57,964 nucleotides of DNA, from NCBI GenBank assembly GCA_025201805.1, contig MU619336.1:64961-122924 (forward strand). The letters are read 5' to 3'. A program made the position numbers and the translations under genes. Shown here one piece after another: positions 691 to 42,682 of this stretch (positions are counted from its first letter, which is position 1; each line of letters begins with the position of its first letter). The stretch is from Parasitella parasitica (lineage: Eukaryota; Mucoromycota; Mucoromycetes; Mucorales; Mucoraceae). The notes below the pieces were generated by a model. That model saw only the letters and a list, made by a program, of their open reading frames with translations. It made no database searches and was not told the DNA's origin.

Positions 691-1107
691 ATAGTGTTTT
701 TAAATTTTCAAGTAGTTCTGCATAGATGATGGAGCTTCTCTTTTTAGTGTGTGTCTTGTAGTGGGAATGATCAATAAACTATCATACTTCACCGATTAAG
801 ATGCGCTTACACAAAGAAATTTTGATAAAGCAATAGAATTTCTCAAGAGCTATAAAATCAAATCGGTATACCGTAGTATGCTGACCTTTGAACAATTAAT
901 CGATGTAATCTGAGGCCTTTGAAAGGCTGCTATTTTATGATATTAGCACTTTAAATAATGTTTGGCAACATTTCACATTGAAAGATTTTACTGCCATGGA
1001 TACTTTATCTTGCGAAAAAGCAATCTATTTTACTTTGTGCATATTAGAAATATGTATAAAACCAATTGTTACCTTGTATAACAGTTTATATTTCATCCTG
1101 TGTAAGC

Positions 1108-1320
1108 TCATTGGAAGCATAAATATGCTCTAACTGCGATTATATCAATAGTAAGTTCCTTTACTGATGCCCCCATCCTTACTGGTTCTTCCGTTGGCTC
1201 CCCCATTCTAACATTAGGAGCAGACTGTCTGATTTTAGGATAAAATAATTTGATAAAACGAACTTTGATAATAACAAAAGTAAGTTTTGCTTGAATGATG
1301 AAGAACATGGTGAAGAACAA
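1108..1320 (-). other. 70-codon ORF retained in both arms, doubtful gene
   Basis: An open frame of 70 codons lies here, and the same-length frame is kept in the other arm at 30241-30453. It begins MFFTMFFIIQAKLTF and has no family I recognise. Of about a dozen nucleotide differences between the two copies, nearly all change the amino acid and only about two are silent. That argues against purifying selection on a protein, so the frame is probably shared by descent of the duplication. Confidence 0.2.
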
Positions 1321-1569
1321 TTGAACTGGCTACAAGCGATCTCAAGACAAGTTCTACGTGCAAGCTACTATGTCAGATTACAATACCTTAGAATTTACAA
1401 AGCACAACTCGCATATGTTTTGTGATTTGCGCTTTTATTTAACGGGTTGATTGTCCCTTTTCGTAAAAAAAAAAAAGTACAATAAGCCTTGGGCTATTGT
1501 CTTGGAAGAGACCTTTATTTAAATTGTACACAATAACCACATTCTACTGCAGGTTCATAGAACATTGTT

Positions 1570-1674
1570 ATAAATACAATAAAGCATACTATCAGCTCAT
1601 TCATATCATGAGATCATTCATAAAGCACCACAATAAATACAATAAAACGTACTAGAGCTCTTTCATATCAGAAG
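1570..1674 (+). repeat. Degenerate direct repeat upstream of the duplicated gene
   Basis: Two ~42-bp units at 1570-1611 and 1633-1674 share ATAAATACAATAAA, then a variable centre, then CTCATTCATATCA or CTCTTTCATATCA. A third partial unit (TACAATAAACC) follows near 1690. The same pair is present in the right arm, so the repeat predates the duplication. It sits 115-220 bp upstream of the start codon and could be a regulatory array. Confidence 0.55.
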
Positions 1675-1718
1675 CCTTATTTATTAATATACAATAAACC
1701 AGAGTTACATTTGAAAAG

Positions 1719-1726
1719 TATAAATA
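1719..1726 (+). promoter_or_regulatory. TATA box of the left duplicated gene
   Basis: A TATAAATA element lies 65 bp upstream of the ATG at 1791. The right copy has the same element at 29835-29842, 66 bp upstream of its ATG. Confidence 0.55.
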
Positions 1727-1790
1727 CGAGTGCTATTAATTCAGTTTTTCCCCCATCTTAAACACTCAATTACTCCCAATATCAACAACA

Positions 1791-3458
1791 ATGGTTCAAG
1801 AAAAAATATTCACTGGACTTGCTGCTTTGGACGAACACATCGAATTGCAAACTAAATCGAAACCTTTACGACTTTACAAGCCTGATCTTTCTGACGATCT
1901 CGATCCGAGCGAATGGGTTTCCATCCACGAATACGAGTTAATTAAATTCATTTCAAAGGACTCACACCACAGCAATGTGATTACTCCACAAATGTTAAGT
2001 ACATTAAAAGAATTGCGACTTAGCAACCCTGATCTTCCGCCTTTTTGCAACTGTTACGAAATTGAAGATTTGCCCGATTTTCCTGTTGAATTTTCGGATG
2101 AAGAAGTTGAAGAATTAAGAGCTCGGGACAAACGAGATAAAGCATACCACATTACTATGTTGTACGAGAATAAGCCAGAAGAATTGGATCTATGTGAACT
2201 TAAACTTTCGGACAATGGCGACTATATTAAATTTATCAAGCCACACGTGGGCATTGAATGCCTTGGACTATACCAGCCCGTCAACTTGACTGCTTCTTCG
2301 CTTGAGTATTTCTTACAGAAACTACTAGGGTTGACATCCATCAAACTTGAAATAAGCTCTTCTAATGATGCTGAATTGCAAACAGAAAAGCCTACTAATT
2401 GGAACAGCCTAATCACCGATTTTTGCAAGCGTCTCAAGGATTTTGAGGAATGCAAAATTGTGATCAATTGCTCCGATTTTGAAGATTATTTGAGTCAAGT
2501 TAAAAATTGGGTCAAGGTTTTAAACGAAGTTGCTGGTTTGAACAAGAAAGGAGTTCCAAGCTCAACACTTCTATTTACAGAAGGCAGTAAAGAGAATGAA
2601 TATTTTATTATAATGGAGCAAAATGGTTCGTGTGTCATGTTTGTCATACCTAACTGCGTTGAAGACAAAAGCATCCAACAAGTCATTGAATCTACAAAAC
2701 CATTTTCACCCAAGGGCATCCTTATATCCTATCCAGAGAACTCTAGCTTTCCAGACAACTCTAGCTTTTTTGAAAAGTTTATAGACACGGTCAAGGGCTT
2801 TCGTCAAAAATCAGCTACAACCTCTTTGTCCGAGTTCGCCAAAAGCTGTATCAAACCATTAAAGCTTGATGATATCAGGATTTTCGACGAGAAGTTCTAT
2901 AAAAAATTGAATTCCAAATCTGATAAGCCAAAAGCTAAAACTGGACACCAAACTACTTTGAATGATGTTGTCTCTATGATCAACTATGGCGCTAAAATTT
3001 TACACTTGTCTAACCTTGATTTCTCTTGCCCCTCATTCAATGATCGAGAAATCAGCGAAAAAGAAAGTCCTGTAGATATCGATCAAATTTGTTTTGTAAA
3101 CTGTGTGATTGATCCGTTGACATTTGGTGAAATGTTGTCAGCAATAGCAAAAACTGATAATTTGGTATTTGTTAATTGTACTTTCATGGCGCAATCTTGT
3201 AACAAACTCGAATTTGACTTCGAGAGAACAAATGTAAATAATTTACTATTGTTTCAGCCACGAGTAGTTTACAATGACAGCACTCCAGTTGCCCCAACTA
3301 ATTGCCATAAATATGAATATAACGTAACTAAGGATGGCCTTCTTTGCCGAGAAACCTCTAGCGAATTCCTCATTTCGATCCGATTCCATGATTGGAAAAA
3401 GTTTTCTTTTTATATGGATGAGGAAGTCATGCATTATGAGGAGGACGAAGAGCACTAA
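1791..3458 (+). CDS. Unknown 555-residue protein, left copy of inverted pair
   Basis: Intronless frame of 555 codons. I do not recognise the family. The protein is soluble-looking, with no signal peptide or membrane span, and is acidic at the end (HYEEDEEH). Recurrent short motifs of the type LHLSNLDFS, LVFVNCTF, ICFVNCVI and LKELRLSN suggest degenerate leucine-rich or F-box-like solenoid repeats, but I cannot confirm this. The start is supported by a TATA box 65 bp upstream and an ACAACAATGG context. A polyadenylation signal follows the stop. The second copy at 28120-29769 keeps an intact frame of 549 codons. Identity is patchy: residues ~60-140 are nearly identical, while residues 1-60 and a few short windows differ heavily. 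This copy also carries a short internal duplication near residue 320 (PENSS/PDNSS). Confidence 0.75.
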   Translation: MVQEKIFTGLAALDEHIELQTKSKPLRLYKPDLSDDLDPSEWVSIHEYELIKFISKDSHHSNVITPQMLSTLKELRLSNPDLPPFCNCYEIEDLPDFPVEFSDEEVEELRARDKRDKAYHITMLYENKPEELDLCELKLSDNGDYIKFIKPHVGIECLGLYQPVNLTASSLEYFLQKLLGLTSIKLEISSSNDAELQTEKPTNWNSLITDFCKRLKDFEECKIVINCSDFEDYLSQVKNWVKVLNEVAGLNKKGVPSSTLLFTEGSKENEYFIIMEQNGSCVMFVIPNCVEDKSIQQVIESTKPFSPKGILISYPENSSFPDNSSFFEKFIDTVKGFRQKSATTSLSEFAKSCIKPLKLDDIRIFDEKFYKKLNSKSDKPKAKTGHQTTLNDVVSMINYGAKILHLSNLDFSCPSFNDREISEKESPVDIDQICFVNCVIDPLTFGEMLSAIAKTDNLVFVNCTFMAQSCNKLEFDFERTNVNNLLLFQPRVVYNDSTPVAPTNCHKYEYNVTKDGLLCRETSSEFLISIRFHDWKKFSFYMDEEVMHYEEDEEH

Positions 3459-3580
3459 CTTTATGTAACCTAACCTCCTCAAAGCAATAGAGATTTAAAA
3501 TAGTCTCTTTTTATATGTCTATGGTATAACTTTTATATGCATCTTTCCTTTGAAGTAAGATATGCCTTTCCAAGTTTATG

Positions 3581-3586
3581 AATAAA
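3581..3586 (+). terminator. Polyadenylation signal of the left duplicated gene
   Basis: AATAAA lies 123 bp after the stop codon and is followed by a T-rich stretch. It is conserved in the inverted copy near 28000. Confidence 0.5.
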
Positions 3587-3909
3587 CAGCTTTATTTTTA
3601 TGCAAAATTATTACCTTATTCTTTGATATTTTCAAACCTTGCAAGAAATGCAACCTAGCCGATTGTCGTGTGTAGCAGTAGATAAAAATTCTCTATTTGA
3701 TATATTGCTTTTAAATCAGCTAAATAGAACAACTAGTTCGATTGCCATTGGAAATTAGTCCTTACTACTTCTTCTTTCTTTAGATGGCATTGCAATTGGA
3801 TCAATACGATGCAAGACCTCAAAATAAATAAACCAACTGGATCATGTCATTGACGACGCAAATAGCAACACCCCTTCCGAAAGCCCTCTGGACAGTTACC
3901 AAATGCTAA

Positions 3910-17700: not shown

Positions 17701-18436
17701 TTATGCTACTTTTGAATTATGTCCGTATCTCAAAGTGATGAATGAAGTGCAGTACCACACATATTTACTACAAGTTCAAGTTCATAAAGCTCAAAAAAGT
17801 ATGCTAAAAGTGAGGAAAAGAACCTGCACATCTCTCTATGTTATGATTATAAATGCCAAAAGTGAACTCAAAATGCGAGATTGCATCCTTGAGTGCACTT
17901 AATGGTGAAAAGGTTCCATATATCAGATAATAATTTCAATGCTTTTAGCTGATCAGATTAATAAATGCAATTTACGCTTTGGCTTTGTCGTTTTGTACTT
18001 GCTGGAAAATCTTTTAATTGAGACCAATTTTCATATAGCTTGCAGCTTACATATTACAAAATGGGATACATGAAACAGATGAATGCAAAAATTGACAGCG
18101 ATTGACACTTTATTTTGAATTACCTCAAGTATCAATGTCATTATTGTAATGCAAATGATTGTCACCTTATTTGTTACACCGAGGAGCTTTTTATTGAATA
18201 AGAAAGGAGTTACTGGCAAGAGTAGATATTACGGTATGTAAATGAAAAGCGAATGTTGCGCATACATTTTTTGCAGATATGTTAAACGATTGATTATGAC
18301 GATACTCTTCGAAATCGGCCTCTTTTCACACGTTCGGCTGAATGTAGAGCTGTGAAGGCGATCTTTTTTTTTCGTTGGGACGTACATTCTTCGCGATGTG
18401 GCCTTAATTGGAAAGACGAGCTAGTGGAAGTGTTAG
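14708..18436. other. Long spacer, no confident gene
   Basis: 3.7 kb of AT-rich DNA. I tried to read spliced genes on both strands and found none. A 117-codon minus frame at 16148-16501 (starting MCIADSDPFRLHNKACLCIS) is the longest open stretch but resembles nothing I know. A CA-rich microsatellite lies near 15772-15796 and a heptamer array at 16072-16099. Confidence 0.45.
16072..16099 (+). repeat. Four tandem heptamers CTTAGNN
   Basis: CTTAGTA, CTTAGTG, CTTAGCG and CTTAGGC follow each other without gaps. It is too degenerate for a telomere remnant. A short tandem array of unknown meaning. Confidence 0.5.
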
Positions 18437-19749
18437 TCAGAGTGGGAGGCCTAAAGAACCAAACACACAGTCAATGTTTGTTTTGTTAAGATCTACTTTA
18501 TTCGTTTGAATACAATACCTCGTAGTTGTTAAACTGTGAGCTAATTTAGCATATGTGAATAAACCTCCTAGTCCTTTCGAATATGAAGAAAACGGAACGA
18601 TGAAAATCATGTAGCACAAAATTATCTATCCATAGTCCAGAATATATTAAGCGATGCCCCCGAATCATTATACACAATTACATCTCTTACCATGTAAATA
18701 ATATCGCTACTAGACTTCTCTGAACCGGCAGTTTGTTGCTTTCCATTCAATTTGTTTTTCAATTCCAAATTCTCATTTTCTAATTGCGAAACCTTTTCCA
18801 ACAAACTTTGATTTGCACTACTAAGATCTGTGCATTGCTCTTCTAGTGCAGACAAGTGCTCGCGCTTTCTTTTGCGGGAGAGTAAAGCTGCAGCTCTATT
18901 CTTTATCAATCTTTCCTGACGCTTTATAATGGTAGCAGCTTTTTGTAGATCTGTATTGGAATTGACAACAGGATATATGGCAGGGGCTCTGGTAGTCGAC
19001 CCACTCGTATGTTGGTTGAGAGTTAGGGTCGATTTTATGTCTATCGACAATTCCTTTTTCGTCATAAAAGATTCTCGGCTATGAGTGCTGTTGCTGGCAG
19101 CAGGCAAAATAGAAGGCAAGTGCTTTGCAGGTGCAGGGGCAATGACAGTTGGGATAGTGGAGTTATGGCGAAGAGGAAAAGAAGTTAAACTTTCGCAACT
19201 GCTTGAAGATGCCACGCTATAGCTAGAATCTCGCTTCTTACGCCCACGCTTCTTTTTAGGCTGTTCGCTGTCAGAAGATGATGAATAAGAGCTTAAGGAT
19301 CTTGGGGATGCTGGTGGATGCTGTACATTGTGGTTGTTTTGTTGCAAATTAAAATACGGCGGTGAACACACCATGTTGATTGTCGTGTCACTCATGTAGG
19401 CAGCAATTGATTGATGTTGCATCTGGTCATGGCTAGGCATCACGAATTGTAGGTTAGTAGTATTCAAAACATCAGTATGAAAGCATGGTGTGGTTGCAGG
19501 CTGATGCTGACGAAACAAATCATCATTAGGAGTTGAAGGAGCAGAATACCAAGTTGCATCGTTATGATCATAGCCCGAAGATGCTATTGCCGTGGCATAG
19601 TTTAATTCTTGAATTGAACTGAATTTGGGTGCGGTTGGAGAAGGAGAAGCTGTAGAAGGTGCCATATAATCAGGATTTAGGTACGACATTAGTAAGTCTT
19701 CTTGATCTTCTTGGAAAGCAGGGTCAGTCTTAATGCAGCGCTGTATCAT
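18437..19749 (-). CDS. bZIP transcription factor with predicted transmembrane anchor (ATF6/CREB3-like layout)
   Basis: Two exons, 19749-18691 and 18625-18437, encode 415 residues. I chose the ATG at 19749 because the longer frame only adds a hydrophobic leader unlike a bZIP start. Residues 1-160 are Ser/Pro/Gln/Asn-rich (activation-domain-like). Residues 165-173 (KKKRGRKKR) look like a nuclear localisation signal. The basic region is near 276-303 (IKNRAAALLSRKRKREHL) and is followed by a leucine zipper to ~335. The 65-nt intron 18626-18690 has GTAAGA and ATAG ends. Splicing joins SSSDIIYM to IILCYMIFIVPFSS, giving a ~17-residue hydrophobic helix 15-20 residues after the zipper. A ~48-residue tail follows with an NKT sequon and two cysteines. 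This is the type II arrangement of ATF6, CREB3 and plant bZIP17/28, which are held in the ER and released by proteolysis. Read through without splicing, the protein ends after 375 residues and is soluble. The bZIP call is firm; ER anchoring is inferred. Confidence 0.85.
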
Positions 19750-27536: not shown

Positions 27537-28119
27537 AAACAACTGTCGTATGCATATACCTCGTTTTTTGTAAATATTTTGCTCCTTTTTTATATAAATA
27601 ATAATTTCTTGTCTTCAGAAGCTGTATCTCACAGGATCTCCAGCCTAGGACATGAATAAACATATTTTTTTAGCATTTGGTAACTGTCCAGGGGTCTTTC
27701 GGAAGGAGTGTTGCTATTTGCGTCGTCTATGACATGATCCAGTTGGTTTATTTATTTTGAGGTCTTGCATCGTGTTGATCCAATTGCACAGCCATCTAAA
27801 GAAAGAAGAAGTAGTAAGGACTAATTTCCAATGGCAATCGAACTAGTTGTTCTATTTAGCTGATTTAAAAGCAATATATCAAATAGAGAATTTTTATCTA
27901 CTGCTACACACGACAATCGGCTAGGTTGCATTTCTTGCAAGGTTTGAAAATATCAAAGAATAAGGTAATAATTTTGCATAAAAAAAAGCTGTTTATTCAT
28001 AAACATGGAAAGGCATATCTTACTTCAAAGGAAAGATGCATATAAAAGTTATACCATAGACATATAAAAAGAGACTATTTTAAATCTCTATTGCTTTGAG
28101 GAGGTTGGGTTATATAAAG

Positions 28120-29769
28120 TTAGTGCTCTTCGTCCTCCTCATATTGCATGGCTTCCCCATCCATATTAAAAGAAAACTTTTTCGAATCATGGAATCGGAT
28201 CGAAATGAGGAATTCGCTAGAGGTTTCTCGACAAAGAATGCCATCCTTAGTTACGTTATATTCATATTTATGACAATTAGTTGGGGCAACTCGAGTGCTG
28301 TCATTGTAAACTACTCGTGACTGAAACAATAGTAAATTATTTACATTTGTTCTCTCGAAGTCAAATTCGAGTTTGTTACAAGATTGCGCCATAAAAGTAC
28401 AATTAACAAATACCAAAGTATCAATTGTTGCTGTTGCTGCCAACATTTCACCAAATGTCAACGAATCAATCACACAGTTTACAAACCAAATTTCACGGAT
28501 ATCAACAGGGATTTCTTTTTCGCTGATTTCTCGATCATTGAATGAGGGGCAAGAGAAATCAAGGTTAGACAAGTGTAAACTTTTAGCGCCATTGTTGATC
28601 ATAGAGACAACATCATTTAAAGTAGTTTGGTGTCTAGTTTTAGCTTTTGGCTTATCAGATTTGGAATTCAATTTTTCATAGAACTCATCGTCGAAAATCC
28701 TGATATTATCAAGCGAGAATGGTTTGATAGAGTATTCGATGAACTTGGACAAAGTGGTTGTAGCTGGTTTTTGCAGAAAGCCCTTGATCGTGTCTATAAA
28801 ATTTCCCAAAAAGCTATACTCCTCTGGATAGGATATAAGGATGGCACCGGGTGAAAATGGTTTTGTAGATTCAATGACTTGTTGGATGCTTATGTCTTTA
28901 TCGCAGTTAGGTACGACAAACATGAAATACGAATTGTTCTGCTCCAATATAATAAAATATTCATTCTCTTTACTGCCTTCTGTAAATAGAAGTGTTGAGC
29001 CTGGAACTCCTTTCTCGTTCAAACCAGCAACTTCGTCTAAAACCTTGACCCAATTTTTAACTTGACTCAAATAATCTTCAAAATCGGAGCAATTGATCAC
29101 AATTTTGCATTCCTCAAAATTCTCGAGACTCATGCAAAAATCGGCGATTAGGCTGTCCCAATTAGTAGGCTTTTCTGTTTGCAATTCAGCATCATTAGAA
29201 GAGCTTATTTCAAGTTTGATGGATTTCAACATTGGTAGTTTCTCTAAGAGATACTCAAGCGAAGGAGCAGTCAAGTTGACGGGCTGGTATAGTTCAAGGT
29301 GTTGAGTGCGCTCGTGTGGCTTGATAAGTTTAATATAGTCGCCATTGTCCGAAAGTTCAAGTTCACATAGATCCAATTCTTCTGGCTTATTCTCGTGCAA
29401 CATAGTAATGTGGTATGCTTTATCTCGTTTGTCCCGAGCTCTTAATTTTTCAACTTCTTCATCCGAAAATTCAACAGGAAAATCGGGCAAATCTTCAATT
29501 TCGTAACAGTTGCAAAAGGGCGGAAGATCAGGGTTGCTAAGTCGCAATTCTTTTAATGTACTTAACATTTGTGGAGTAATCACATTGCTGTGGTGTGAGT
29601 CCTTTGAAATGGAATTAATTAGCTCGTATTCGTGGCTGGAAACCCATTCGCTCGGACCGAGATCGTCAGAAAGATCAGGCTTGTAAAGTCGTAAATGTGC
29701 CGGAGTAGTGCACAAGTTGAGGTGTTCGTCCAAAGCAGCAAGTCCTATGAATGTTTTTTCTTGAGCCAT
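28120..29769 (-). CDS. Unknown 549-residue protein, right copy of inverted pair
   Basis: Intronless frame of 549 codons starting at the ATG at 29769, the same start context as the left copy (ACAACAATGG). It is the paralogue of the gene at 1791-3458. The core from ~residue 60 to 140 is almost identical. The first 60 residues differ at ~14 positions, and one window reads HERTQHLELY here but HVGIECLGLY in the left copy. It lacks the short internal repeat of the left copy (SYPEEYSFLGNF instead). No known family is recognised, and no signal peptide or membrane helix is present. Both frames being intact after clear divergence suggests both are, or recently were, functional. Confidence 0.75.
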   Translation of the reverse strand: MAQEKTFIGLAALDEHLNLCTTPAHLRLYKPDLSDDLGPSEWVSSHEYELINSISKDSHHSNVITPQMLSTLKELRLSNPDLPPFCNCYEIEDLPDFPVEFSDEEVEKLRARDKRDKAYHITMLHENKPEELDLCELELSDNGDYIKLIKPHERTQHLELYQPVNLTAPSLEYLLEKLPMLKSIKLEISSSNDAELQTEKPTNWDSLIADFCMSLENFEECKIVINCSDFEDYLSQVKNWVKVLDEVAGLNEKGVPGSTLLFTEGSKENEYFIILEQNNSYFMFVVPNCDKDISIQQVIESTKPFSPGAILISYPEEYSFLGNFIDTIKGFLQKPATTTLSKFIEYSIKPFSLDNIRIFDDEFYEKLNSKSDKPKAKTRHQTTLNDVVSMINNGAKSLHLSNLDFSCPSFNDREISEKEIPVDIREIWFVNCVIDSLTFGEMLAATATIDTLVFVNCTFMAQSCNKLEFDFERTNVNNLLLFQSRVVYNDSTRVAPTNCHKYEYNVTKDGILCRETSSEFLISIRFHDSKKFSFNMDGEAMQYEEDEEH

Positions 29770-29834
29770 TGTTGTTGATATCGAGAGTAATTGAGTGTGT
29801 AAGATGAGGAAAAAATTGAATTTATTAACACCTG

Positions 29835-29842
29835 TATTTATA
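29835..29842 (-). promoter_or_regulatory. TATA box of the right duplicated gene
   Basis: TATAAATA on the minus strand, 66 bp upstream of the ATG at 29769. Conserved with 1719-1726. Confidence 0.55.
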
Positions 29843-30240
29843 ATTTTTAAATGTAACTCTGGTTTATTGTATATTAATAAATACGGCTTCTGATATGAAT
29901 GAGCTCTAGTACGTTTTATTGTATTTATTGTGGTGCTTTATGAATGATCTCATGATATGAATGAGCTGATAGTATGCTTTATTGTATTTATAATAATGTT
30001 CTATGAACCTGCAGTAGAATGTGGTTATTGTGTACAATTTAAATAAAGGTCTCTTCCAAGACAATAGCCACAGGCTTATTGTACTTTTTTTTTTTTACGA
30101 AAAGGCACAATCAACCCGTTAAATAAAAGCGTAAATCACAAAACATTTACGAGTTGTGCTTTGTAAATTCTAAGGTATTGTAATCTGACATAGTAGCTTG
30201 CATGTAGAACTTGTCTTGAGATCGCTTGTAGCCAGTTCAA

Positions 30241-30453
30241 TTGTTCTTCACCATGTTCTTCATCATTCAAGCAAAACTTACTTTTGTTATTACTAAAGTT
30301 CGTTTTATCAAAGTATTTTATCCTAAAATTAGACAGTCTGTTCCTAATATTAGAATGGAGGAGCCAACGGAAGAACCAGTAATGATGGGGACATCAGTAA
30401 AGGAACTTACTATTGATATAAGCGCAGTTAGAGCAGATTTATGTTTCCAATGA
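30241..30453 (+). other. 70-codon ORF, right-arm copy, doubtful gene
   Basis: Counterpart of 1108-1320, with the same length and start. Differences between the copies are almost all amino-acid changing, which fits neutral drift. Confidence 0.2.
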
Positions 30454-30924
30454 GCTTACACAGGATGAAATATAAACTGTTATACAAGGTAACAATTAGT
30501 TTTATACATATTTTTAATATGCACAAAGTAAAATAGATTGCTTTTTGGCAAGATAAAGTATCTATGGCAGTAAACACTTTTCGATATGAAATGTTACCAA
30601 ACATTATTTAAAGTGCTAATATCATAAAATAGCAGCCTTTCAAAGGCCTCAAATTACATCGATTAATTGTTCAAAGGTCAGCATACTACGGTATACCGAT
30701 TTGATTTTATAGCTCTTGAGACATTCTGTTGCTTTATCAAAATTTCTTTATGTAAGCGCATCGTAATCGGTGAAGCATGATAGTTTATTGATCATTCCCA
30801 CTACAAGACACACACTAAAAAGAGAAGCTCCGTCATCTATGCAAAATCACTTGAAAATTTAAAAACACTATGTATATATATAAGTTTATCTAGAGGCAGG
30901 GATATGAAATGAAAAAAAAATTAA

Positions 30925-37350: not shown

Positions 37351-40300
37351 ATGCCTATTAGGGCTGCTAGTAAGGTAGTTAAGATACTATCAAATCAATA
37401 CTATGAATATGGAAAATTAGTAGCATCTCGAACCTATTTATTACTACTATTTTCTTTATCGTTCATATCATTCTTTTCATTTCCTCTTGTATCCAAATAC
37501 TTCAGTAACATAGTAGCGCCCACTCTACATAGCAATATACCTTCAACGCACATATCAACCACACTAGATGCTCAATGCTGGCACGCTTCAGCTCACATCC
37601 AATTCAACAATTTTACACTATCGAGAAACTCGCCCTCCGCTTATTTATTGACTGAGCAGATTAGGATTTCTCGGCCGAATAAATCCGTCAATTACGAGCT
37701 AATCCAACTAGCAAAACAAATCTATGAAAGCATCGCAACGACTATGGTTACTGTGAGCAGTAGCTCGGCTCCTGTGTCTCTGGCATCCATCTGCTACAAA
37801 CACCAAGGGCACTGTTTAATCCATGCTCCACCATTTACTGCATTTCAAAACGAACTTGATTGGACATTGAATACCAAATTAGGGAACAATGATAATTCTT
37901 ACGAGACACATCCCTACAGCGTATACTCGAATGCGACATTTGATCTTCAAGGCAACTTTGTCAAGGCAGATGCAGTTCTACTCACGTTTGTGCTGAATCA
38001 GACTATTCAAAATGGAGATACGCTGACTATCTGGAACAAAATACTGAACGAGGTGAAATCAAAATTTGACGTACTGGAAATTCAGCAGCATTCTGACAGA
38101 GATGGCACCCTGTGGTCGTCTTTATCAAACACGATGCCGCATATGATTCAATATAAAGTAAGAAGTTGCCCTGTTTTTTTTTTTTTTCATTTGACAATAA
38201 CTGAAATTTTGCATTATAGTTTAATTTGTTTCCATATGACATTTCGTACAACGTGCAGTTCTCCATCATTGCATACATTGTCGTATTTTTCTTGGTATCA
38301 ATGGCCTTTGGAAAGTCCAATCTGGTCAAATCTGGGTATACATTTGGCTTGGCAGCTATATTTTTATCAATTGCTTGTTTCACAACTACCTGGGGCATAT
38401 TCGACAAACTCGGCATCTCGTTTCACTCTGCACCTTGGTATCTCTTGCTGCTTGTCGTCAATATCGGCTGCTTGGAGAATATCTTTTTGTTGACAAATGC
38501 AGTGTTGTATGCTGGATGTGACATGATTGTGACAGAAAAGATTAGCAGAGGTAACTATTACAGCACGTTGCCATGGTTTTTCGTCCCCTCATTTTTATAA
38601 ACAATAGGCTTGCAAAGTGTCGGCGTTCCTATGACAGCTACCTTGATTGCTGAATTACTTATTCTTAGTGTGGGCACTCACATGGATACTGACCTTGTAA
38701 CAGAATTCTGCACATTTGCAAAGGTTGCTCTGATTGTCGACTACATTTTGGAAATGACGTTCGTCATTGCTGTGTTGTCTATTGATATCAAGCGTGTCGA
38801 GGTAAACTGCAGTACAGCTCAGCTTAAATGCCTGCTTGCTAACAATTTCTACTAGCTGGCTGATTTAGACGACCGTCAGATGTCAAAACGATTACATGAA
38901 TTGTCTAGTTTTGAGCATGACAAGGAAGGGGTTCAATCGGATTTCTGCCCGATTCAGGACACACCAAATAAAGAAGACTCGAAATCTTGCGCCGAGTGCA
39001 AAGAGTTCAAAACGCATCGAGTATTTTGTGCTTTTATGGTATGTTAGTTGCAGGTTTGCTTGGAGATATACTTACACGTTCATCTGTTTAGCTTTGCTTG
39101 ATTGTACTCACGTTATCGCTGTTTGTATCCAAAGATCACCACCGCCATAAAAATGTTCCCTATGCGCTGATTCTGACCGAGAAGCACCAGCCAGATTTAT
39201 ATCAGTTGTCAGATCAATTTTGGTCCACTGTAAATCCACAAAAGGACATTACTTGGCTCCAAATCCAACCGCCTCATTTATTCATTTTCGACAAGGACGT
39301 AATTCGAGTCCAGGAACATCTCAATTTTCTGCAGCAACTGTATCAAGTCAAGTCAAAAGCGATCCACTACAGAACCGAATACCGTCCGTCTCGCTTCCGC
39401 AGGCTTGTATTGTCTCTAGTGCAGAGCTTTCTCGTGCTGATACTCGGCATCAATATCCCCATCTTGATCCTTTGCTTGGTTATGATCGGTATCATTACCT
39501 GGATGACACCCAAATGGCGCAAACAATGGCTCGTTCCTCTTTTGATCCATTGCTTCAACGAGTTCTTTTTATATCTGATACGCTGTTATCCCACGCAGTA
39601 CTTGAAGCGCATGTATTTTATCTGGATCAAGGGCCGATCATTCGAAAGCGACGTCAAGGAATACGATGCAGATGGCATACACCACCGGGGCGCTATTTCT
39701 GTGCAGCATATTTTCAACCAGCAACAGTACCGTGCCAATGTAAAAACTGTTCAGCTTCGTACGCTGACAAATCAACACGTTGCCGATATCCAAAACTTGG
39801 ACGCGAATGCCAAACAAAGCTTGGTATCTTGTGGCCAGGACGGCCGGATTATCCTGTGGAATGTAGACAGGAAAAAGGCTACCTGGGTTGCTCGATTTGA
39901 TAAATTATATCCCTCCCGAGGGGGTGTTCTGCAGGCTCTGCTGAACCCTATTTTCTTTCCGTCTAACAAAAAGAAGACACTGGGAAAAAAAACGTCCCGC
40001 CAACAACAGCAGCAAGAACCCCAACAACCACCACCGCAACCACGCTCTGTATCGTTATCGAAAAACTACCTCTCCAAGGCTCGTCTTGTAAAGATTGATC
40101 AAGGCAACAAATGGGCTGCTGCTGGCTATGATGATGGCTTGATCCGTGTGTGGAACGTGAGTAACGGTGCTCTTGTGCGTGAAATGGATGTGCACCCCCA
40201 AATGCCGCTCGTTGAAGTCCAGGAAGAACAATCAGGCTGCAGTACGATGCGCAACAGATTTAATGGAATCCATAGCGGCTCAAGCTCCCCAACCCTAACT

Positions 40301-42682
40301 CATACTAGCTTTGCATTCTCCTCTGCGTCATCTGCTTGCTCCAATAGTACAATCCACAGTGTTGTCAGCGTCAGAAAACCCGCCATTGATCGTATTCTGT
40401 CCATCGCCTTTATTGGCGTGATCACTGAATTCTGTCATCCGTTAGTTGCTGAAGCGGCAGCCCGTTGTCGATCCTCTTCAGACGTCGAAGCGTCTCAAAA
40501 CTACCTTGTGTCTGCTCATAAAAGTGGCGTTCTTCATGAATGGAACATCCTATCAGGGGAATGCATTCAATCGATCAAGACGGGTCACACAAAGGATATT
40601 ACTCAACTGCATGTAGTGGACTCCAAAGCTCTTCACCGTAAAATTGGTGTTACTTGGGTCTTTACAGCTTCGAAGGATGGCACCGTCAAATGCTGGGATC
40701 GTCGATTTATTGCATCGTCTTCCACCGTGAAACAAACAACGTCTGAGGACCACGCGGACGACTTTAGTCAGCACGTGACCAAATGGACTCTTGTATATAC
40801 GATCAAGCTGAATAGCCCTGTCACTTCGATTGCTACTGAGCTGCCAGTGGGTGGCATGGGTATTCTGGTTACCGGCTGCAGCGACGGCACAGTCAAAGTA
40901 TGGAATTTCGAAACTGGCAAGTCCGTGTGCGCATTGTCGTTGGGAAAAATTACCAGCAAATCATCTCAGAACATGGCCTCTGTTGGCTCTGCTGACTCTG
41001 ATTTTGGCCTGAGTAACGCAGGTGGTCCACTTCGCAAATTCTCAAAGTTTTCTCATGTAGTTGGTCAAAGCATGAGCGATGGCTCTGATGACGATTCTTC
41101 TGATTCGTCGCTTTCCTCGTTTTCTCGTCATACCGCCTCTGATCATCGTGGTGCGATCTACCAAGTTGTGGTGACACGATATTGCGAGGTGGAGAACGGG
41201 CCAGGCCTTTGTCGCGGCTGTGATACTTGTTTTGGTAATGGCTTCTTAATTGCTTCAAGTGCGATGGACAACAAGGTACACGCTTGGCGCTTGGAACGTT
41301 CGGACAATGGCCACGAAGGCTCCTGTACGCTGTGCACAAAAGACTATCACCGCAAGCAATACAAACATCGCAAATCGTCCCTTGGCAACAGTGACGATGG
41401 CACCAGCGATCCATTACTGCATAAATCTGCCACTGCAAGTAGTAGAAGACGACGAGCATCGCAGCAAGGCAGCCACAACCCTACAGTCAAAAAGAGACAT
41501 GTTGCCTCTCGAGCAGCTGGTGTGTCTGCAGCCAATGGCAACAGCATCAGGGATGATATGCTGGAGTTGCTGGACATTGAGCAATTGGCTGGAGATGCTT
41601 TTATCCCATTGAGGCCCACCTTTCTCGGTAAGATTGATCAACCTGCCGGGCGTGGTGTTGTCTTTTGTGATAAAATCTTGGCTGGTGTACGTCGTCGTTC
41701 CAATTCAACCCACAGCAGCAGTAGCAAAAGTCCAGTGAAGAACGGTAATAATGAATGGGAAGCCTGGTTCGCTTCTTTACAATATTACGATCCTGCCGAT
41801 TCGAAAGAAGATGGGAATCCCAACAGTATCAAGATTCCTATTGAGACGTTCAACCTGGATGACGATCAGCAAAATATCTCGTTAGCCCCACTCGCGGACA
41901 AGGAGGAAGACTCGCCCAAAGCAGCTCAGGTCTTGAGAGATACGCTGCTAAGTCTGTTTAGTTTGTCCACATCACCATCTTCTGCTGCTGCCCCCACTAC
42001 GCATGTCAGAGATCAATTGAGATACAAGGGCATTCACGCGCATATATCTGAAAATAATGAGGATGCCAAAAAAATTGACAATGACAATGATGACCCTCAT
42101 GAAGAGAGCTTGGAAGCAAGCGAGAACTTGCCTTTTTCTGCGGTGCGTCATGTCATTCCTCTGGATGGGGCTGGCTTGGCTTGTGATTTTGGCAATTTCA
42201 TCAAACTGGTGTATCTTGACAAACCTACTTTGACCGAAAAAGAGCATGCAAAGCAAACAAGAGATGCGATGGAAGATCATAAACGTCGCCAAACGATTGC
42301 TGAACAGGTGGTGGCAGAAGAAGACGAACCAGAAGAGTCTTCTCAGTGTCAATGTGGTTCTGATGAGGGCTCTGGTACACTATGCTCGCCTGGAAACAAA
42401 GGTAAAGATGGCTGCTGCGGGGGCGTGAATAAAGATAAAAATGGTGGCAAATGTTGCGGTGGTGCTGGAAATGTCAAAAAGAGGCAGCAAGAAAAGAGGC
42501 AGCAAAAGTTGTTGCTCAAGAAGGAAACACTGTTTTTTGACAACAACAACACATGCGGTGGCATTCCTAGTATTGCTGAATGTTCTCTAAAAAACAACTG
42601 CTCTCGTGCTGCTGATTGTACATCATCAAATCAAGCATTGGCTTCAAGCGCTTCAGTTTCCTCCTTCAGTAACTGGCTGTAA
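37351..42682 (+). CDS. SCAP: SCAP homologue (sterol-sensing domain plus WD40 repeats)
   Basis: Five exons: 37351-38157, 38220-38550, 38608-38801, 38856-39038 and 39092-42682, with introns of 53-62 nt, giving 1701 residues. A first membrane helix lies near residues 28-48 and is followed by a large lumenal loop. Exons 2-3 encode the sterol-sensing domain: several helices starting FSIIAYIVVFFLVSMAFGKS, then GIFDKLGIS, then GCLENIFLLTNAVL. Further helices follow (LCLIVLTLSLF, LVLSLVQSFLVLILGINIPI). The cytosolic C-terminal half carries at least six WD40 units, for example LVSCGQDGRIILWNVD, AAGYDDGLIRVWNV, TASKDGTVKCWD and TGCSDGTVKVWNF. This membrane-plus-WD40 fusion is specific to SCAP (fungal Scp1), which escorts the sterol-regulated transcription factor SREBP from ER to Golgi. 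The protein is longer than human SCAP (~1280) because of low-complexity inserts and a Cys-rich tail. Confidence 0.92.

What the first reader, a model, noticed from the sequence alone, without database searches (positions are those of the whole stretch)
18437..19749. Fungal bZIP factor that appears to be membrane-tethered, ATF6/CREB3 style
Seen: a 65-nt GT-AG intron (18626-18690) joins the zipper exon to a second exon that supplies a ~17-residue hydrophobic helix (DIIYMIILCYMIFIVPF), then ~48 residues with an NKT sequon and two cysteines. Known: ATF6, CREB3/OASIS and plant bZIP17/28 have bZIP, then one helix, then a lumenal tail, and are activated by regulated proteolysis. Fungi are usually described as using spliced Hac1 instead. 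Inference: this lineage may keep an ER-anchored stress factor. The lumenal tail is far shorter than that of ATF6, so the sensing mode would differ.
Basis: partly seen in the sequence, partly recalled or inferred. Interest (0 to 1): 0.82.

Follow-up and report, generated by a model that had tools for sequence, protein, structure and literature searches.

The report
Short-tailed, membrane-anchored fungal stress-type regulator
A gene of the fungus Parasitella encodes a DNA-binding protein that appears to be moored to a cell membrane near its end; it looks like a shortened copy of an animal-like stress sensor that early-branching fungi seem to have kept, although fungi are usually said to lack it.

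Summary
A second intron (18451-18518) was missed; the NKT sequon and both tail cysteines are intronic. The protein has 440 residues (three exons, 18294-19749, minus strand) and equals the annotated Parasitella parasitica protein. bZIP, helix and tail recur in five named Mucor species.

It is a Mucorales paralogue of a long-tailed family seen in Mucoromycota, Mortierellomycota and Basidiobolus, with tails of 136-387 residues. The long form in the same genome has both introns at the same places. The long tail weakly resembles the ATF6 lumenal domain: hhalign 29.6 against at most 23.2 in 200 column shuffles, though 1 of 200 block shuffles scored higher and the reverse search failed. The window gene lacks those blocks. 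The genome also has an Ire1-type RNase domain and a Hac1-like gene. A 2016 survey that included Mucor detected no ATF6-type domain in fungi (PMC4736632, passages).

Best reading: a sensor-less, membrane-tethered ATF6-like bZIP. Location, release and function are inferred; no S2P was found.

The parts
18691..19749 (-). Exon 1: residues 1-353, Ser/Pro-rich N-terminal region, basic KKKRGRKKR stretch, bZIP (residues 275-334), first residues of the hydrophobic helix
   Evidence: identical to P0001
18626..18690 (-). Intron 1, 65 nt, GT-AG, phase 0, at the start of the membrane helix; unspliced reading gives a 375-residue protein without the helix
   Evidence: same junction in 50 of 54 relatives' models classed as ending before the helix exon and in the own-genome long paralogue
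18519..18625 (-). Exon 2: most of the membrane helix (residues 350-366, IIYMIILCYMIFIVPFS, of which 350-353 lie in exon 1) and the first part of the tail
   Evidence: helix aligned in P0003-P0008
18451..18518 (-).
18294..18450 (-). Exon 3 with TAA stop: basic C-terminal end of the tail (...KRGRFRRVSS)
   Evidence: C-terminus aligned in P0003-P0008

Best explanation
The gene encodes a type II membrane-tethered bZIP transcription factor (cytosolic bZIP, one helix, 75-residue tail), a Mucorales-specific paralogue of a long-tailed, ATF6-like tethered bZIP kept by early-diverging fungi. Shown: gene structure, hydrophobic helix, conservation, paralogy, intron positions shared with the long form of the same genome, absence of the conserved long-tail blocks. 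Inferred: it sits in the ER or nuclear envelope membrane and its N-terminal part works in the nucleus only after release. Without the sensor blocks it would not read unfolded proteins in the lumen itself. It would be released by a cue read at or in the membrane helix, or through pairing with its long-tailed sister, by an intramembrane route other than S2P (signal peptide peptidase-type genes are present).
For: Gene model identical to the annotated protein. Among the six close relatives the helix is 96% identical on average, the same as the bZIP and above the N-terminus (86%) and exon 3 (80%). The long paralogue in the same genome (L033 = P0080, 575 aa) has intron 1 in phase 0 at its helix and intron 2 in phase 2, as in the window gene. 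14 of 17 short-tailed rows in a 66-row tree lie outside a 50-row clade (98/88) that holds 47 of the 49 long forms. 36 ATF6 tails rank 3-45 among 2208 sequences scored by the fungal long-tail profile; ranks 1-2 are the own long-form exon, and 7 decoys are interspersed. hhalign scores 29.6, with 0 of 200 column shuffles higher. The 20 residues before the helix carry net charge +1 to +2 and the 20 after it -1 to +2 over seven proteins, weakly in favour of a cytosolic N-terminus. Two signal peptide peptidase-type loci are present.
Against: No expression, location or cleavage data; no dedicated membrane-topology program was run. Between Parasitella and the six relatives the helix keeps only 9-10 of 18 residues, less than the N-terminal region (159-166 of about 263). 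The ATF6 link rests on the long form and is weak: the reciprocal profile search did not beat shuffles, hhalign probability is 16-17%, the best local alignment covers 44 columns and two blocks, 1 of 200 block-of-8 shuffles scored higher, and the ATF6 rows are near-copies, so they count as about one observation. The short tail shows no detectable similarity to the long tail (10.6, below shuffles at up to 16.6). The last 35 residues are strongly basic (+5 to +8), unusual for a lumenal tail. In Parasitella itself the charges either side of the helix are equal (+2 and +2).
Confidence: 0.6

Rival explanations
1. A splice switch: intron 1 sits at the start of the helix, so retaining it yields a soluble, nuclear 375-residue bZIP and removing it yields the anchored form. 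Regulation would then be by intron retention rather than by proteolysis.
For: The position holds across the family: 50 of 54 relatives' models classed as ending before the helix exon read ATG|GT there. Retention in the window adds 22 residues and then a stop.
Against: A conserved intron position needs no regulatory role; stop codons soon after a junction are expected by chance. No RNA data. The intron has ordinary GT-AG ends, and no Ire1-type CNGNNGN hairpin was found in the spliced mRNA.
Confidence: 0.2
2. A decaying or dominant-negative duplicate: the anchor is kept but the sensor is gone, and the protein mainly dimerises with the long form and holds it at the membrane.
For: The conserved long-tail blocks are absent from the short tail; long and short forms are listed under the same species names, and both lie in this genome.
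Against: N-terminal region, helix and tail are well conserved among six relatives (0.80-0.96 mean identity, linker 0.83), so it is not decaying freely; heterodimerisation was not tested.
Confidence: 0.15
3. The hydrophobic stretch is not a membrane anchor but a buried or degradation signal of a soluble bZIP.
For: The stretch is short (17-18 strongly hydrophobic residues), and only hydropathy was computed.
Against: Hydropathy mean 2.46 over 17 residues. In the long family the corresponding segment is nearly invariant, and PDB chain 6iak aligns with the window protein from the bZIP through the helix (272-373, E 2.8e-5; that 6iak is chicken CREB3, a membrane-tethered factor, is recalled).
Confidence: 0.05

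Closest known systems
ATF6 (metazoan, ER stress)
   Same: bZIP followed by a single helix and a C-terminal tail. The long-tailed sister aligns collinearly with the ATF6 lumenal domain at three blocks: a tryptophan helix, LSLxSP and QIDVQV.
   Different: The window protein's tail is 75 residues and lacks those blocks. No S2P-type protease was found in the genome. The link was not significant in the reverse search.
CREB3/OASIS family
   Same: bZIP, then helix, then tail (family layout recalled); the best PDB match of the window protein is the 441-residue chain 6iak, aligned across bZIP and helix (E 2.8e-5; identity as chicken CREB3 is recalled).
   Different: Similarity reaches only from the bZIP to just past the helix; tails were not compared; ordinary CREB is close behind (E 1.6e-4).
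Early-fungal long-tailed tethered bZIP (P0080/L033 and relatives)
   Same: Both intron positions and phases with P0080; bZIP and helix at the same junction.
   Different: Tail of 136-387 residues with conserved blocks; helix nearly invariant, whereas the window's helix has diverged.
Hac1/XBP1
   Same: UPR-type bZIP; the genome has its own Hac1-like gene, L022.
   Different: The window mRNA has no Ire1-type hairpin by the scan used; its introns are spliceosomal in form.

Membership tests
ATF6 | bZIP followed by one membrane helix with a C-terminal tail | tested here: met
   by hydropathy and conservation only
ATF6 | ATF6-type lumenal domain in the tail of the window protein | tested here: not met
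   75-residue tail; no similarity to the fungal long-tail profile above shuffles. It was not aligned with ATF6 itself
ATF6 | ATF6-type lumenal domain in the long-tailed sister family | tested here: inconclusive
   Forward profile and hhalign positive, reverse profile not; low-confidence structure models show a roughly similar order of elements, with extra ones in ATF6
ATF6 | Release by S1P and S2P | tested here: inconclusive
   No Peptidase_M50 match at E up to 10 in the own genome (the control genomes are prokaryotes and introns can hide a gene). 25 subtilase-family matches, none assigned; a recalled S1P fragment gave no match, with no positive control
ATF6 | ER-to-Golgi transport and induction of ER chaperone genes under stress | not testable with these tools
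   Needs experiments
CREB3/OASIS | Conserved region N-terminal of the basic domain (named for OASIS in PMC4736632, passages) | not tested
   No CREB3 family set was at hand beyond the PDB chain 6iak
Hac1/XBP1 | Ire1-type hairpins with CNG-type loops in the mRNA | tested here: not met
   No CNGNNGN loop with an unbroken stem of 4 or more pairs in the 1517 nt from the start codon to 18100, introns removed
Early-fungal long-tailed tethered bZIP family | Intron of phase 0 at the helix, intron of phase 2 after it | tested here: met
   Window and L033 compared exon by exon; intron 2 was checked in these two genes only

The most novel reading that the evidence does not exclude
Early-diverging fungi (Mucoromycota, Mortierellomycota, Basidiobolus) keep a true ATF6 orthologue with its lumenal sensor beside Ire1/Hac1. 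The fungal ancestor then had at least two arms of the unfolded protein response, one was lost on the way to yeasts and moulds, and Mucorales duplicated the gene and stripped the sensor from one copy, the window gene.
Probability: 0.4. Interest if true: 0.8.

Novelty: new variant of a known kind. Interest (0 to 1): 0.6.

Why it matters
Fungi are described as using Ire1-Hac1, with ATF6 and PERK as further animal arms (PMC10512342, passages). A 2016 bZIP survey that included Mucor circinelloides reported that the ATF6-specific domain was not detected in fungal orthologues (PMC4736632, passages). A tethered ATF6-like family in early fungi would move the origin of that arm before the split of animals and fungi, and the long/short pair offers a natural experiment on what the lumenal sensor is for.

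Tried and rejected

Papers: no paper on a fungal ATF6 or on a tethered bZIP of this kind was seen in searches (0 papers; 3 of 3 listed; 15 of 85 listed; 15 of 17; 15 of 800; 11 of 11; 4 of 4). Only open-licence papers are held. I saw passages, not whole texts, of PMC10512342, PMC4891664, PMC13294678, PMC4736632 and PMC6025073.

Full report
What is there. The gene lies on the minus strand at 18294-19749. Exon 1 (18691-19749) ends after an ATG codon; intron 1 (18626-18690, 65 nt, phase 0) follows; exon 2 is 18519-18625; intron 2 (18451-18518, 68 nt, phase 2) follows; exon 3 is 18294-18450 with a TAA stop. The translation equals the annotated protein BD408DRAFT_446424 of Parasitella parasitica, 440 residues, letter for letter.

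More than chance. The bZIP passes Pfam's cut-off (42.7 bits against 27.6). The best 17-residue hydropathy mean is 2.46. Six full-length relatives (P0003-P0008; five named Mucor species and one unnamed source) share helix and tail in the alignment. Mean pairwise identity among these six is 0.96 for bZIP and helix, 0.86 for the N-terminal region, 0.83 for the linker, 0.85 for the rest of exon 2 and 0.80 for exon 3. Against the Parasitella protein itself the helix is less conserved, 9-10 of 18 residues, below the N-terminal region at 159-166 of about 263. Of 54 relatives' models that my filter classed as ending before the helix exon, 50 read Met-Val, that is ATG|GT, at the same junction; of the other four, P0006 was misfiled because it has the helix, P0078 also ends in FMV, and P0036 and P0094 do not fit.

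The family. The first search gave 155 proteins at E up to 0.001, of which 120 were listed. The second, with 16 long forms, gave 233 at E up to 1e-5, of which 120 were listed. Both scored only a capped set of about 8000 candidates. The listed named sources include Mucorales, Umbelopsis, Endogone, Jimgerdemannia, many Mortierellomycota, Calcarisporiella and Basidiobolus. Whether Dikarya have members cannot be told from these cut lists. Of 160 proteins examined, 113 passed as having a hydrophobic segment after the bZIP; 29 of these have at most 95 residues after it, and those above that mark have 136-387. The long forms have a nearly invariant helix (consensus MVFMIILFSFALFSLP or close to it) and conserved tail blocks (LQxWI, YLYS, LSLISP, YLQIDVQVL).

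Same genome, two forms. A search of the own genome with the protein found the gene itself and one clear paralogue, C86:118988-119893 (E 4.1e-18), besides weak bZIP matches. That locus (L033) translates exactly into P0080, 575 residues, when two introns are removed: phase 0 at the start of the helix and phase 2 at the end of exon 2, as in the window gene. In a 66-row tree on 130 columns, 14 of 17 short-tailed rows fall outside a 50-row clade (98/88) that holds 47 of 49 long forms; the two others are from Backusella, and three short rows lie inside. Few columns and long branches make the finer order unsure.

The ATF6 question. I recalled that the long-tail blocks resemble the ATF6 lumenal domain and tested it. 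A profile of 54 fungal tails, without bZIP and helix, ranked 36 ATF6 tails at 3-45 among 2208 scored sequences; ranks 1-2 are the own long-form exon (held twice), and 7 decoys are interspersed. Split profiles were weaker: with 20 non-Mucorales tails the 36 rank 3-161 of 2143, with 34 Mucorales tails they rank 3-47 of 2167 except two at 249 and 749. hhalign aligned a tryptophan helix, the LSLxSP strand and the QIDVQV strand collinearly. The best local score is 29.6 over 44 columns, that is the last two blocks, against at most 23.2 in 200 column shuffles and 15.4 reversed; 1 of 200 block-of-8 shuffles was higher. Against this: the ATF6 profile did not pick fungal tails above shuffles, hhalign's own probability is 16-17%, and the vertebrate rows are near-copies. 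Structure models give a helix followed by three strands in the fungal tail (pLDDT about 55-67 there) and a helix, a second helix and five strands in ATF6 (pLDDT below 50), so they are compatible but prove nothing. I hold the homology likely but not proven.

What the window gene lacks. Its 75-residue tail has no such block and no detectable similarity to the long tail. It ends in a basic stretch. So it is not filed as an ATF6 by domain content, although it may be one by descent through the long form.

Other stress machinery in the genome. An Ire1-type RNase domain is present in two pieces (C3:385867-386307). L022 encodes a Hac1-like bZIP (the name is my reading of the sequence). Removing 144 nt between CAG|TATG and CCCTG|CAGC, the latter in a CTGCAGC hairpin loop, joins it in frame to a tail ending LDDLFDWDGQQQVVNTIGGNDTF; ordinary GT-AG splicing of almost the same stretch gives a short out-of-frame end. 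The scan found only that one hairpin, none at the 5' site. No S2P-type domain was found. There are 25 subtilase-family matches, none assigned to S1P; a recalled S1P fragment gave no match. Two signal peptide peptidase-type loci are present. Absence claims are weak, because the search is exon by exon and the named control genomes are prokaryotic.

Mechanism. Most likely the protein is inserted as a type II membrane protein and its N-terminal factor is freed by regulated cleavage; lacking the sensor blocks, it would respond at the membrane or via the long form. Only the anatomy is shown. Rivals are a splice switch at intron 1, a dominant-negative duplicate and a non-membrane role of the helix.

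Literature. PMC4736632 (passages) groups ATF6 with HAC1 as one opisthokont family, sampled Mucor circinelloides and Rhizophagus, and states that the ATF6-specific domain, with others, was not detected in fungal orthologues. PMC10512342 (passages) contrasts fungal Ire1-Hac1 with animal ATF6 and PERK. PMC13294678 (passages), a 2026 search for membrane-bound regulators, reports a candidate family in fungi, but one with the MYRF-type DNA-binding domain; the word Mucor does not occur in it. Database names that mention ATF6 are already attached to two relatives, P0003 and P0022. No paper on the family was seen in searches.

Noticed in passing
window 37351-42682 (+): A SCAP-like gene: N-terminal hydrophobic ORF, sterol-sensing domain (C100:103285-103767, that is about window 38325-38807) and a WD40 region. 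An SREBP-type arm would be encoded about 18 kb from the tethered bZIP. The name SCAP is my inference.
   Followed up: partly
window 691-3909 and 27670-30871: Two inverted arms of about 3.2 kb, 93-97% complementary, each holding a similar ORF of 572 or 605 residues without Pfam match at E 0.01; the bZIP gene lies between them.
   Followed up: no
L022, about 1453-2230 (own genome C150:41905): Hac1-like bZIP with a possible Ire1-type intron of 144 nt; an ordinary GT-AG splice is also possible at almost the same place and gives a short out-of-frame end.
   Followed up: partly
P0001/P0002 and P0080/P0044: Two sets of database proteins named Parasitella parasitica differ strongly (about 69% identity, and 87%); the two assemblies may not be one species.
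   Followed up: no
long-form helix, alignments A2 and A3: The long-form helix is nearly invariant from Mucorales to Mortierellomycota and Basidiobolus, more than anchoring seems to need; it may be read by a protease or partner.
   Followed up: no
own genome: 38 bZIP matches at E up to 0.001 in 30.7 Mb, a large set for a fungus (the judgement of size is mine).
   Followed up: no
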